From: Alphaproteobacteria bacterium
GTDB taxonomy: Bacteria; Pseudomonadota; Alphaproteobacteria; Micropepsales; Micropepsaceae
Direction: 5' to 3'
DNA: 64,000 nucleotides
Assembly (NCBI GenBank): GCA_016792565.1
Contig: JAEUMK010000104.1
Coordinates: 1-64,000, forward strand
A program made the position numbers and the translations under genes. Each line of letters opens with the position of its first letter. Within the stretch, counting starts at the first letter, position 1. The notes beneath the pieces are model-generated. The model ran no database searches. It worked only from the letters and a program-made list of their open reading frames with translations, and was not told where the DNA came from. Below are positions 14,852 through 20,972 of this stretch, piece after piece.

Positions 14852-15610
14852 ATGGCCCGCTCCAATTGCGAACCCGACGACGGTCTGCCGGGCAAGGCCG
14901 CCAAGATCGTGCAGCGCCGCCCGGCAGCGGCGAAGCCGCCGGCGAACTCCGGCCCAGCCAAGCCGTCCTACTTTCCCGGCGGCCAGTCGAAGGCCGGCTT
15001 CGAGCTTGAATCGACGCCCCAGGAGTTCGAGGCCCTGAAGAAGCGCATCGTGGCGATCCTGAGGTCGTCCGAATGCGCCATGATGAATTTCGCCGTCGGC
15101 CGCGTGATGGTGACCGGGCGCGGCTATGCCGCTGTCGCGGACGCCGTCGAGACCGGCAAGATCGCCGTCACCCTTGCGACAGCCGCGGGCTATGAGGCGT
15201 CCTATTCGCCCTCAACCCGCACGTTCCAGTTTCCCAAGATCGGCTATGGCGTGCTGCGCAAGGAGCGCGGCTCGATCGTCCATGAAGCGACCCACGCGCT
15301 GATCGACATCTATCTGAACATGAACCCGGGAAGCGGCGAGGCGCTGTCGTCGAGCGACGAGGAGCCGGTCTGCTACATCGCCGAGTGCGTGTTCTATGCC
15401 CTCAATGTCCGGGAGTCGGCGACGCAGATGGAAACGCCCGAGAGCGCGCATGTCCTCGCCATGCGCCGACAAGCGGAACTGATCGGCAACCGCATCGCGC
15501 TCGATATTCTGAACAACCGCAGCAGGCTGCTGAAGGTGCCGCCCCAGGCCAACCTTGCCGATCTCGGATTGCTCAGCCACCTCATCGCGACGCATCCCGA
15601 ATACCAGTAG
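14852..15610 (+). CDS. Hypothetical protein with HEXXH metallopeptidase-like motif
   Basis: A 252-residue protein I do not recognise. It has a basic, Pro/Ala-rich N-terminus (about 15-40) and then a globular domain. Residues 143-149 read VHEATHA, an HEXXH motif on a helix with hydrophobic flanks (SIVHEATHALIDIY). EEP near 170-172 or AECV (Glu178) could give the third zinc ligand. No signal peptide or transmembrane segment is visible. A GGAGG Shine-Dalgarno precedes the ATG. It converges with the ABC exporter gene, with only 6 bp between stops. Zincin activity is inferred from the motif alone. Confidence 0.75.
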   Translation: MARSNCEPDDGLPGKAAKIVQRRPAAAKPPANSGPAKPSYFPGGQSKAGFELESTPQEFEALKKRIVAILRSSECAMMNFAVGRVMVTGRGYAAVADAVETGKIAVTLATAAGYEASYSPSTRTFQFPKIGYGVLRKERGSIVHEATHALIDIYLNMNPGSGEALSSSDEEPVCYIAECVFYALNVRESATQMETPESAHVLAMRRQAELIGNRIALDILNNRSRLLKVPPQANLADLGLLSHLIATHPEYQ

Positions 15611-18231: not shown

Positions 18232-18452
18232 AGGAACTCGCCTCCTTTCCTGTCTTCAGGATGAGCAAGTCCACCACGGATTCACCGATCTGTCACGCCG
18301 GATGACGCCGCCTGACGGCGAATTCATGTGCTGCGGCGCGGCAATTCCGCGGTCAGTCTTTCCGGGGCGTTAAGGTGCACGCAAGGCAAGACAGGGTTTG
18401 CGCCGCCCGCTATGGTCGGCGCGGGGACAAGGCGCAGGGAATCAGCCTCGGC

Positions 18453-18677
18453 ATGTCAGCGTTCGAGCCGGACGAGAGCGAGGAAGACAGGGCGGTCCGC
18501 ATCAAGCTGGGGCTGCTGCGACAGGAGCACCGCGATCTCGACAGCGCGATCCAGGCGCTGTCCGATGCGTCCGCCCGCGACCAGTTGCTGCTGGCTCGTC
18601 TGAAGAAGAAGAAACTGGCCCTGAAGGACCAAATTCTCCAGATGGAAAACCAGCTTATTCCCGACATCATCGCCTGA
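18453..18677 (+). CDS. DUF465 family protein, second copy
   Basis: A 74-residue helical protein: an acidic N-terminus (MSAFEPDESEED) followed by RIKLGLLRQEHRDLDSAI and the Lys-rich RLKKKKLALKDQI, which is the DUF465 pattern. The ATG at 18453 is chosen; an earlier in-frame start at 18375 lacks family similarity. Two DUF465 genes near purE/purK are a recurrent alphaproteobacterial arrangement. Confidence 0.85.
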   Translation: MSAFEPDESEEDRAVRIKLGLLRQEHRDLDSAIQALSDASARDQLLLARLKKKKLALKDQILQMENQLIPDIIA

Positions 18678-18761
18678 CGCGGCGATGCGCCGCGTCGCGC
18701 GGCGGCCGCGGCGGCGCTAGTCAGGCTGGCGGGGGGCGGAAACCTCAACGGAGCCGCCGAC

Positions 18762-19535
18762 ATGACGCTACTGTGGAACGGCGACGTCCTGCCGACCGTC
18801 GCTACATCGCAAATCCTGATGCGGCGGCACCGGCCGCAGACGCTGATCACGACCGACGGTCATTTCGGTCCGAAAACCGGCAATGCGGTCTGGAAATTCC
18901 AGGACCACCACACGCTGAGCCGCGACCAGATCATCGGCCCCATCACCTGGCACAAGCTGGAGGATGTGAGCCGTCTGCGCACGCTCGACGTGGTCGACGG
19001 CACCGACTCATCGCTGGTGCAGCTGGAAGCGAACGATCTGCGCCGGGCGGGCTTCGATCCCATCGTTCTGTTCGGCATGTCGAACGGGCTTGAGGTCGCC
19101 ATGAACGAGATCGCGGCGCGCGGCGGCAACGGCCAGACGATGCTGCTGCGCTTCCATGGGCACGGCAACAACGGTCTGCAGAACGTCACCGGCGGCGAGA
19201 TCAACGGGGCGCCGCATCTGGCGGCTATCTCGCTGTCGAACTACGGCCAGATCGAGCATCTGCTGGTCCGCATCAAGCGGATCTTCGTCGAGTTCGGCGC
19301 CGTGCAGCTGCTGGGCTGCGACGTCGGCGGCGGCAAGGGCACCGGCCTGGTGGAGCGGCTGGCCCAGACCTGGGGCGTGCCGGTCACCGCCGGCATCCAT
19401 ACCCAGTTCGGCGGCGGCAGGGCGACGTTCCGCTTCGAGGGGGCGACGGTCAGCAAGTTTCCCGGCGGCGATTCGCTGAAGGGCTGGTCGGCCGCCATGG
19501 AGCAGCGGCACGGCATGCAGTCGGAGAACAGCTAG
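18762..19535 (+). CDS. Peptidoglycan-binding domain fused to a His-Cys (caspase-like/DUF4347-like) domain
   Basis: A 257-residue protein with two recognisable parts. Residues 1-68 are a peptidoglycan-binding-1-like repeat (TTDGHFGPKTGNAVWKFQ). Residues about 95-235 have a strand ending in LLRFHGHGN (His132, His134), then 50 residues later VQLLGCDVGGG (Cys186) and LAQTWGVPVTAG. A strand-HGH ... strand-GCD order with these spacings is what clan CD cysteine peptidases and the DUF4347 domain show, so a His-Cys dyad is plausible. No signal peptide is visible, which is odd for a peptidoglycan-binding protein. The end is 5 bp from the convergent GGDEF gene. Function is inferred from motifs only. Confidence 0.75.
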   Translation: MTLLWNGDVLPTVATSQILMRRHRPQTLITTDGHFGPKTGNAVWKFQDHHTLSRDQIIGPITWHKLEDVSRLRTLDVVDGTDSSLVQLEANDLRRAGFDPIVLFGMSNGLEVAMNEIAARGGNGQTMLLRFHGHGNNGLQNVTGGEINGAPHLAAISLSNYGQIEHLLVRIKRIFVEFGAVQLLGCDVGGGKGTGLVERLAQTWGVPVTAGIHTQFGGGRATFRFEGATVSKFPGGDSLKGWSAAMEQRHGMQSENS

Positions 19536-19540
19536 ACGCT

Positions 19541-20275
19541 CTAGCGCCGGGCGGCGCGGGCCTGGACCTTGCGCTCGTACATCGCCTGGTCGGCGCGAGC
19601 CATCGCCTCGGCCGGGTTCTCGCCGGGGCGGAACTCGTAGGCGCCGGTGGTAAAGGCGAGCTGGATCGCCTTGCCGTTCCAGACCAGCGGGCAGGCCTTG
19701 ATGATCTGGGCCATCAGTTCGGCCTTGGTGTCGGCCTCGGCCTGGTTCGCCTTGGCGAGAATGATGCCGAACTCGTCGCCGCCCAGGCGGCCGAGCAGGT
19801 CCGATTCCCGGATGTGGCCCTTGAGGACCTCGCAGACCTGCAGCAGCGCCGCGTCGCCGGCGGCGTGGCCGTGCTGGTCGTTGATGTCCTTGAAATTGTC
19901 GAGGTCGAGGTAGACGAGGCTGGCGGGCAGGCCGTAGCGCTCGACGAAGGAGAGGATGCGCGACATTTCGCGCACGAAGGCCCGGCGGTTGAGGCAGGGC
20001 ACGAGGACATCCTGGTCGGCGTCGGCCTCGAGCTGCGTCATGCGCTTGCGCTGGTTCTGGAGCTCCTGGCGCAGATGGTCGACCTCGCCCATCAGCTTCA
20101 TGATGGCGTCGCGGACCCGGGGCGTGAATTCGTGGGCGGGAATGCCGAGGACGCTCTGAGCGTCGGCGACACCGCGCGGGCTCGCCGTCGCGGGCGCGCC
20201 GGGCCGGGGTGCGACCGGGCGGGCCGGCGTCGCGCCGAGGATACCCCCGGGCTGCATGGTGCCTGCAACGCGCAT
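19541..20275 (-). CDS. Diguanylate cyclase (GGDEF)
   Basis: A 244-residue protein. It starts with a Pro/Ala-rich segment (1-35), has a coiled coil about 60-88 ([15 protein letters not shown]), and then a GGDEF domain with the intact active site GGDEF at 165-169. An I-site RESD (156-159) lies five residues before it, so product inhibition by c-di-GMP is expected. There is no transmembrane or sensory domain, so it is a soluble cyclase. The ATG at 20275 is chosen; the open frame extends to 20605 but overlaps purE. It diverges from purE with 148 bp between starts. Confidence 0.9.
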
Positions 20276-20423
20276 GAGTCCGAGACGTCTCCAAGTGAGG
20301 CGGACAGTCTGCGGCGGGAGTCGGAACCAAACCGTTAATTCTCCTTCGCCAAGACTGGCACGGCGGTTGCGCCGCTCGGGCGTCCGCCATATACCGCGCG
20401 TTTCCTCAACGAGGACCGGTCCC

Positions 20424-20972
20424 ATGGCCGCCGCGCCCAAGCGTTCCCCGCGCCGTACCAAGCCGCCCGCGCCGCCGCTGGTCGGCGTCATCATGGGCAG
20501 CCAGTCCGACTGGTCGATCATGCGCCATGCGGCCGAGACGCTGGCGGCGCTCGGCGTGCCGCACGAGACGCGGATCGTCTCGGCGCACCGCACGCCCGAG
20601 CGCATGTACGCCTATGCCGACAGCGCGCAGGAGCGGGGCCTCAAGGTCATCATCGCCTGCGCCGGCGGCGCCGCCCACCTGCCCGGCATGACGGCCGCGC
20701 TGACGCCGCTGCCGGTGCTGGGCGTGCCGGCCTCGGCGACCGGCCTGCAGGGCTTCGACAGCCTGCTCTCGATCGTGCAGATGCCGGCCGGCATTCCGGT
20801 CGGCACGCTGGCGATCGGCCGGGCGGGGGCGGTGAACGCCGCGCTGCTGGCCGCCGCCATCCTGGGCACCGGCGATGCGAAGCTGATGAAGCGGCTGGAG
20901 GAGTATCGCAAGCGCCAGACCGCCGCCGTGGCGCTGGAGCCGAAGGACGACGCCGCCGGCCATGGCGGGTGA
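20424..20972 (+). CDS. purE: 5-(carboxyamino)imidazole ribonucleotide mutase
   Basis: A 182-residue class I PurE, which converts N5-CAIR to CAIR in purine synthesis. The conserved [21 protein letters not shown] and [10 protein letters not shown] motifs are present. A 15-residue basic N-terminal extension precedes the usual start. It overlaps purK by 11 bp, as is normal for this pair. Confidence 0.96.

What the first reader, a model, noticed from the sequence alone, without database searches (positions are those of the whole stretch)
18762..19535. Peptidoglycan-binding domain fused to a candidate His-Cys (clan CD-like) domain
The 257-residue protein joins a PG-binding repeat to a segment with FHGHGN and LLGCDVGG 50 residues apart, the layout of caspase-like and DUF4347 folds. 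No signal peptide is visible. It could be a small enzyme that acts on or near the cell wall, or an intracellular effector.
Basis: partly seen in the sequence, partly recalled or inferred. Interest (0 to 1): 0.62.

Follow-up and report, generated by a model that had tools for sequence, protein, structure and literature searches.

The report
Likely injected wall-binding cysteine protease
This bacterial gene makes a protein with a wall-binding front half and a caspase-like protease back half, most likely a cargo that the cell's type VI injection machine shoots into neighbours; each half is known, but the pairing appears new.

Summary
In detail: 18762-19535 (+) encodes a leaderless 257-aa protein with one PG_binding_1 domain and a C-terminal His/Cys domain. 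The likely dyad is His134 (not His132) and Cys186, the only columns identical in 32 of 32 aligned relatives. The domain is a divergent DUF4347 (hhalign E 1e-11). A DUF4347 proxy model matches best the solved Hcp3-Tce1 complex, a T6SS-loaded cysteine protease (Z 13.5), then CHAT and caspases; the protein's own model failed. The gene is a single-gene insert under purifying selection, shared with soil isolate SO-S41 and absent from the same site in two sister species. A relative about a third identical sits in a tight operon inside a T6SS cluster. All five genomes with small relatives carry TssB, against 5 of 96 in the order. T6SS-bearing genus members hold 20 leaderless N-terminal PG_binding_1 proteins with varied C-terminal domains; the one T6SS-less member holds none. 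Best reading: an orphan, Tce1-like T6SS cargo peptidase. Secretion, activity and target are untested.

The parts
18762..19535 (+). The gene: 257-aa leaderless PG_binding_1 + Tce1/DUF4347-like cysteine peptidase candidate (P0001)
   Evidence: ortholog L004:5001-5774
18750..18753 (+). GGAG, likely ribosome-binding site
   Evidence: sequence printed
18846..18959 (+). PG_binding_1 domain, residues 29-66 (whole domain probably residues 12-66)
   Evidence: Pfam 23.5 bits, cut-off 23; ortholog 12-66, 31.7 bits
18987..19532 (+). C-terminal divergent DUF4347, clan CD-like domain (residues 76-257)
19161..19163 (+). His134, predicted catalytic histidine
   Evidence: identical in 32 of 32 rows, 20 of 20 rows
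19317..19319 (+). Cys186, predicted nucleophile
   Evidence: identical in 32 of 32 rows, 20 of 20 rows
18375..18677 (+). DUF465 (YdcH-like) gene, left border of the insert
   Evidence: Pfam 50.2 bits; directly next to the GGDEF gene in G013 and G014
19541..20605 (-). GGDEF gene, right border of the insert
   Evidence: Pfam 120.9 bits

Best explanation
[quoted passage not shown] The C-terminal domain (residues about 76-257) is a clan CD-like cysteine peptidase of the DUF4347/Tce1 kind, acting through Cys186 with His134. The N-terminal PG_binding_1 domain is the trafficking module: most likely it helps loading onto the VgrG/Hcp tube, as proposed in print for PG_binding_1 in vgrG loci. The protein has no signal peptide because the T6SS tube carries it. 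Shown: both domains, conserved dyad residues, homology to DUF4347, fold match of a DUF4347 proxy to Tce1, T6SS in the genome, a relative in a T6SS operon, clean presence/absence at the site. Inferred: proteolytic activity, secretion, role of the PG-binding domain, target.
For: Domains. His134 and Cys186 are the only fully conserved columns, 32 of 32. Homology to DUF4347: the family profile finds DUF4347 domains of large frames, best E 2.3e-9; hhalign 97.4%, E 1e-11. Joint profile against PDB sequences: top hit 9qpe_G, Tce1, E 3.5e-5. Proxy model: Foldseek top hit 9qpe_G, E 6.4e-4; VIA Z 13.5 over 147 aligned residues, next row 8.9, with CHAT and caspases following. Tce1 is loaded in Hcp3 and its dyad was aligned with a clostridial toxin protease domain in PMC13323088 (passages read). 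Relative P0004 lies 3 nt after TagH and overlaps a Phage_base_V OB gene by 4 nt, beside VgrG, Hcp, ClpV, TssK, TssL and TssM. Own genome has a T6SS cluster. TssB in 5 of 5 genomes with small relatives but in 5 of 96 of the order. PG_binding_1 is one of six domain families found stand-alone, on VgrG C-termini or on toxin N-termini in vgrG loci (PMC10673891, passages read). Clean insert, dN/dS 0.20.
Against: The window gene is not near any T6SS gene; its genome's T6SS is on another contig. P0005 and the G611 relative are not near T6SS genes in the stretches read either. The protein's own model failed (pLDDT 32). A profile of the four family members alone did not find Tce1 in PDB sequences. The DUF4347 score is below cut-off for this protein. 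No immunity gene is visible. Most DUF4347 matches are domains of very large open frames, not small effectors. One of six viral-contig DUF4347 domains has Asn for His. Co-occurrence with T6SS rests on few, partly related genomes. The vgrG survey reported PG_binding_1 only in gammaproteobacteria.
Confidence: 0.6

Rival explanations
1. T6SS cargo whose PG_binding_1 domain is a true wall anchor: after injection it holds the peptidase in the periplasm of bacterial prey, where it cuts envelope proteins or wall peptides. This differs from the best explanation only in the job of the N-terminal domain and the compartment.
For: PG_binding_1 over cut-off, with the DG-FGPKT and IIGPxTW stretches kept in the ortholog; one other leaderless PG_binding_1 protein carries a GH19 match (G324:C150).
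Against: No immunity gene beside it, though a periplasm-active enzyme would threaten siblings. Several partner domains of the same module (C70, M35-like) are protein proteases rather than wall hydrolases. Tce1 and Tce2 are likewise reported without visible immunity genes, and Tce2 as active in yeast.
Confidence: 0.2
2. Not secreted: an intracellular or envelope housekeeping peptidase that happens to carry a PG_binding_1 domain, for example in wall turnover or in regulation with the neighbouring DUF465 or GGDEF genes.
For: It stands among housekeeping genes (DUF465, GGDEF, purE, purK) in two species; no T6SS gene nearby.
Against: Absent from the same site in two sister species and, as a full-length gene, from 94 of 96 genomes of the order; no visible route to the wall (no signal peptide). 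P0004 sits inside a T6SS operon.
Confidence: 0.15
3. A self-processing domain, as proposed for caspase-like domains of large toxins: it cuts only itself, for example releasing the PG_binding_1 part after delivery.
For: Most DUF4347 matches found here are in very large open frames; caspase-like domains often act as releasing peptidases in polymorphic toxins (PMC3482391, passages read).
Against: Nothing else would be released: the protein has only these two domains, and the peptidase is the last one, the place that the same paper ties to toxin rather than processing use.
Confidence: 0.05

Closest known systems
Tce1 (PA0256), H3-T6SS cargo of Pseudomonas aeruginosa, DUF4347, PDB 9qpe
   Same: Two domains, DUF4347-type C-terminal domain, no visible immunity gene; joint profile hit E 3.5e-5, proxy model Z 13.5. 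Published His186-Cys240 spacing 54, here 52.
   Different: Tce1's N-terminal domain is a predicted beta-sandwich, here PG_binding_1. Hcp binding shown there, untested here. Missed by the four-member family profile.
Tce2 (PA2372), H3-T6SS cargo, 190 aa
   Same: Same predicted fold and dyad in print; relative P0005 (184 aa) has similar size and only the peptidase domain.
   Different: No N-terminal extension; its sequence was not compared here.
DUF4347 domains of very large proteins (PF14252)
   Same: Homologous domain, same conserved His and Cys.
   Different: There one domain in a very large open frame; here a two-domain leaderless 257-aa protein whose score is below the Pfam cut-off.
PG_binding_1 proteins of vgrG loci (PMC10673891)
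   Same: PG_binding_1 at the N-terminus of a candidate toxin domain.
   Different: Reported there as limited to gammaproteobacteria and within vgrG loci; here Alphaproteobacteria and mostly orphan genes.
Clan CD peptidases: caspases (C14), legumain (C13), CHAT, C80 toxin protease domains
   Same: Fold class by the proxy model; His then Cys after hydrophobic strands.
   Different: No Pfam match of the protein to those families at E up to 10.

Membership tests
PG_binding_1 (PF01471) | Score over the curated cut-off | tested here: met
   23.5 of 23 bits; ortholog 31.7. The relative P0004 is below it (17.9).
DUF4347 (PF14252) | Score over the curated cut-off | tested here: not met
   19.4 of 24.6 bits for this protein and 20.5 for the ortholog; met by P0004, 29.8. 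So it is called a divergent relative, not a member by Pfam's rule.
DUF4347 (PF14252) | Homology by profile comparison | tested here: met
   hhalign 97.4%, E 1e-11; DUF4347 matched by 4 of 4 members scanned, best E 2.1e-7
Clan CD cysteine peptidase | Conserved His-Gly and Cys after hydrophobic strands (motif recalled) | tested here: met
   LLRFHGHG and VQLLGC; His134 and Cys186 32 of 32
Clan CD cysteine peptidase | Caspase-like fold with His and Cys in one site | tested here: inconclusive
   Own model pLDDT 32. A DUF4347 proxy model matches Tce1, CHAT and caspases; no coordinates were available to measure the distance.
Clan CD cysteine peptidase | Peptidase activity lost with Cys186 changed | not testable with these tools
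   needs a bench assay
Tce1-type T6SS cargo | Sequence relation to Tce1 | tested here: met
   family plus DUF4347 profile: 9qpe_G top hit, E 3.5e-5; the four-member profile alone missed it
Tce1-type T6SS cargo | Beta-sandwich N-terminal domain (as predicted for Tce1) | tested here: not met
   PG_binding_1 instead; Tce1 feature
Tce1-type T6SS cargo | Binds inside Hcp | not testable with these tools
   needs co-purification
T6SS effector | Genome carries a T6SS | tested here: met
   VipA E 2.6e-54; VgrG, Hcp, ClpV
T6SS effector | Gene lies in a T6SS or vgrG locus | tested here: not met
   window gene stands among housekeeping genes; met for relative P0004 in G324
T6SS effector | No signal peptide | tested here: met
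   (crude hydropathy test) and reading of the frame
T6SS effector | T6SS-dependent secretion | not testable with these tools
   needs a secretion assay
Peptidase C14 and C80 | Sequence match to those Pfam families | tested here: not met
   no match at E up to 10; HMMER filters drop most weak matches

The most novel reading that the evidence does not exclude
PG_binding_1 is the constant N-terminal module of a polymorphic, mostly orphan T6SS effector set in Alphaproteobacteria: single-gene cassettes dropped between housekeeping genes, each pairing this module with a different enzyme (Tce1-like clan CD, AvrRpt2-like C70, M35-like zinc peptidase, GH19, unknown). A leaderless protein that starts with this module would then be predicted T6SS cargo even far from any vgrG gene.
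Probability: 0.4. Interest if true: 0.72.

Novelty: new variant of a known kind. Interest (0 to 1): 0.55.

Why it matters
T6SS effectors far from T6SS genes are hard to find. If the pattern holds, a simple rule (leaderless, N-terminal PG_binding_1, enzyme behind it) picks them out in Alphaproteobacteria, where PG_binding_1 in vgrG loci was not reported. It also gives Tce1, described in a gammaproteobacterium, a distant relative with another N-terminal module, in a cultured soil strain where loading can be tested.

Tried and rejected
His132 as catalytic residue: present in only 4 of 32 rows, rejected.

Phage or plasmid origin: phages and plasmids gave only PG_binding_1 matches; the C-terminal domain gave none; P0004 none in plasmids; the DNA around the gene matched plasmids only in the DUF465 gene.

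Own structure: the two-sequence AlphaFold model has pLDDT 32 and was not used. A deeper alignment headed by this protein from sequences allowed for folding was tried seven times: in six the histidines fell out of register, and the one in register covered only the front half, so none was folded. Dehydrogenase-like and imine reductase rows at Z 6.7-7.6 are taken as a common arrangement only.

Weak hits (L010 to L014; E 0.002-0.006) look like chance or wrong-frame readings and were dropped. In that script several '-' loci were read on the wrong strand; later scripts took the strand into account. The first read-out of the PG_binding_1 loci had the same fault and was replaced.

A search in the order of G324 covered the same 23 genomes as and added nothing.

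That the combination is not in print rests only; subscription papers are mostly not held.

Full report
What is there. The 257-aa frame at 18762-19535 (+) is real and as described. PG_binding_1 covers residues 29-66 at 23.5 bits (cut-off 23); DUF4347 covers residues 156-211 below its cut-off. The window is bases 1-64000 of contig C31 of a 3.07 Mb genome in 114 contigs. An 82% identical protein of equal length lies in Alphaproteobacteria bacterium SO-S41, in the same order: DUF465, this gene, GGDEF, purE, purK (purE and purK named by reading). SO-S41 is a forest-soil isolate (PMC8297455, title and start of abstract in the search listing). Between the two copies NG86 gives dN/dS 0.20, with similar rates in both halves, so both halves are kept.

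A cassette. In two sister species, G013 and G014, the DUF465 and GGDEF genes stand next to each other with no copy between them; in G014 some 15 bases separate them. The GGDEF gene is 77% identical between the window genome and SO-S41, but 68-69% to those two, so one gain before the split of the first two is the simplest history. In the order, 3 of 96 genomes have any match at E up to 1e-4; the full-length gene is in 2 of 96, the third being only a PG_binding_1 match.

The C-terminal domain. In 385 genomes of the class a search with residues 76-257 gave 8 genomes with matches at E up to 0.01; besides the own genome only two are credible: P0004 in G324 (270 aa, E 3.3e-22) and P0005 in G344 (184 aa, no PG_binding_1, E 5.1e-7). 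A profile of the four sequences then found DUF4347 domains, mostly of very large open frames; 33 of 398 genomes of the phylum had a match, the own genome and G344 included. Of the 30 loci fetched, all 30 were found again and 28 (the other two repeat family members) were aligned with the four: His134 and Cys186 are the only columns identical in 32 of 32, while His132 is in 4 of 32. The rows were chosen by a profile, which favours conservation; among six DUF4347 domains fetched later from viral contigs, 5 of 6 keep the His and 6 of 6 the Cys. hhalign of the family against 14 DUF4347 domains gives 97.4%, E 1e-11.

Fold. The protein with its ortholog alone did not fold (pLDDT 32). A proxy, the DUF4347 domain of L136 with five relatives, folded well (pLDDT 87.5, pTM 0.85). 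Its first Foldseek match among 350,542 PDB chains is 9qpe_G, the Hcp3-Tce1 complex, E 6.4e-4. VIA-align gives 9qpe_G Z 13.5, rmsd 2.8, 147 residues; then SAVED-CHAT 8.9 and caspase-3 7.7, with unrelated imine reductase chains from 7.6 down. By sequence, a profile of 20 family and DUF4347 rows has 9qpe_G as top PDB hit, E 3.5e-5, listed as a DUF4347 domain-containing protein; the four family members alone had not found it. Tce1 is PA0256; the paper reports it bound within Hcp3, with His186 and Cys240 lying where the dyad of a clostridial toxin protease domain lies, and no obvious immunity gene nearby (PMC13323088, passages read). An earlier paper named PA0256 as a putative antibacterial Hcp3 cargo with a DUF4347 domain (PMC8262886, passages read); the later one saw no marked effect in E. 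coli and toxicity of Tce2, not Tce1, in yeast.

T6SS links. The gene of P0004 in G324 lies between a TagH gene (3 nt before it; TIGR03354 249.7 bits) and a 93-aa Phage_base_V OB gene that overlaps it by 4 nt, in a cluster with VgrG, Hcp, ClpV, TssK, TssL and TssM (ClpV by reading of a Clp-type AAA match). The own genome has a T6SS cluster on contig C51. VipA (TssB) is found in 5 of 96 genomes of the order (G000, G007, G011, G013, G014). All five genomes with small relatives have it: G000, G011, G324, G344, G611; of the two others with DUF4347 matches that were tested, G534 has it and G201 has not. The class-wide rate was not measured. Leaving out the own genome, matches to the full-length protein at E up to 1e-4 occur in 2 of 4 T6SS-bearing and 0 of 91 T6SS-less genomes of the order; worked out by hand the chance of that is about 0.001, but both are of one genus.

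The N-terminal module. PG_binding_1 has 39 matches in six genomes. By reading each frame, leaderless proteins with the domain at the N-terminus number 5 of 8 in G000, 10 of 13 in G011 (two of them short, without a visible enzyme), 2 of 4 in G013, 3 of 6 in G014, 3 of 6 in G324, and 0 of 2 in G012, which has no VipA; its two are transglycosylase-like proteins with the domain at the end. The leader test is crude hydropathy and some frames were cut by locus ends. Partner domains: Peptidase_C70 over cut-off in four (G000:C93, G011:346155, G013:C253, G014:C271); Aspzincin_M35 at the cut-off in G014:C6 (30.4 of 30), below it in G011:2876070 (25.1), and weaker in G000:C27 and G324:C448; GH19 in G324:C150; the rest unknown. 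None of the orphan genes whose surroundings were read (G000:C27, C39, C41, C93; G011 2876070 to 2889838) has a T6SS gene nearby by reading. A tree of the 72-aa domains puts this protein's domain with those of C70 and other partners and apart from the transglycosylase and AmpD-like ones; it is short and no support values were read. A survey of vgrG loci lists PG_binding_1 among six domain families found alone, on VgrG or on toxin N-termini, and says it is limited to gammaproteobacteria there (PMC10673891, passages read).

Verdict. A Tce1-like clan CD cysteine peptidase candidate with a PG_binding_1 module, most likely an orphan T6SS cargo. The peptidase fold is well supported through relatives; T6SS delivery is inferred from a relative's operon, co-occurrence and architecture. 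What the N-terminal domain does, and the target, stay open.

Noticed in passing
14852-15610 (+): Leaderless 252-aa ORF with HEATH (HExxH, zinc peptidase-like) and no Pfam or NCBIfam match. SO-S41 has at the same site, before the ABC transporter gene, a PG_binding_1 protein (L004:1061-1852): a possible second effector hot spot 3 kb from the finding.
   Followed up: partly
L088; L121; L119; L118 (G000:C39, C93, C27, C41): Four more leaderless N-terminal PG_binding_1 proteins in the window's own genome, with C70, M35-like or unknown C-terminal domains, among housekeeping genes.
   Followed up: partly
L130:6539-9978 (G011:C1:2888538-2891977): Two tandem PG_binding_1 paralogs with proline-rich linkers and a similar unknown C-terminal domain, followed by an unrelated 354-aa ORF and then a further PG-binding-like 189-aa ORF.
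   Followed up: no
L057:8964-10001 (G611): Stand-alone 346-aa DUF4347 protein (25.6 bits, cut-off 24.6) in a genome with two VipA genes, not next to them.
   Followed up: no
L018:430-711 (-): Stand-alone 93-aa Phage_base_V OB domain gene overlapping P0004 by 4 nt; could be an adaptor or a spike part.
   Followed up: no
L137:123-575: A DUF4347 domain with Asn in place of the conserved His, likely inactive.
   Followed up: no
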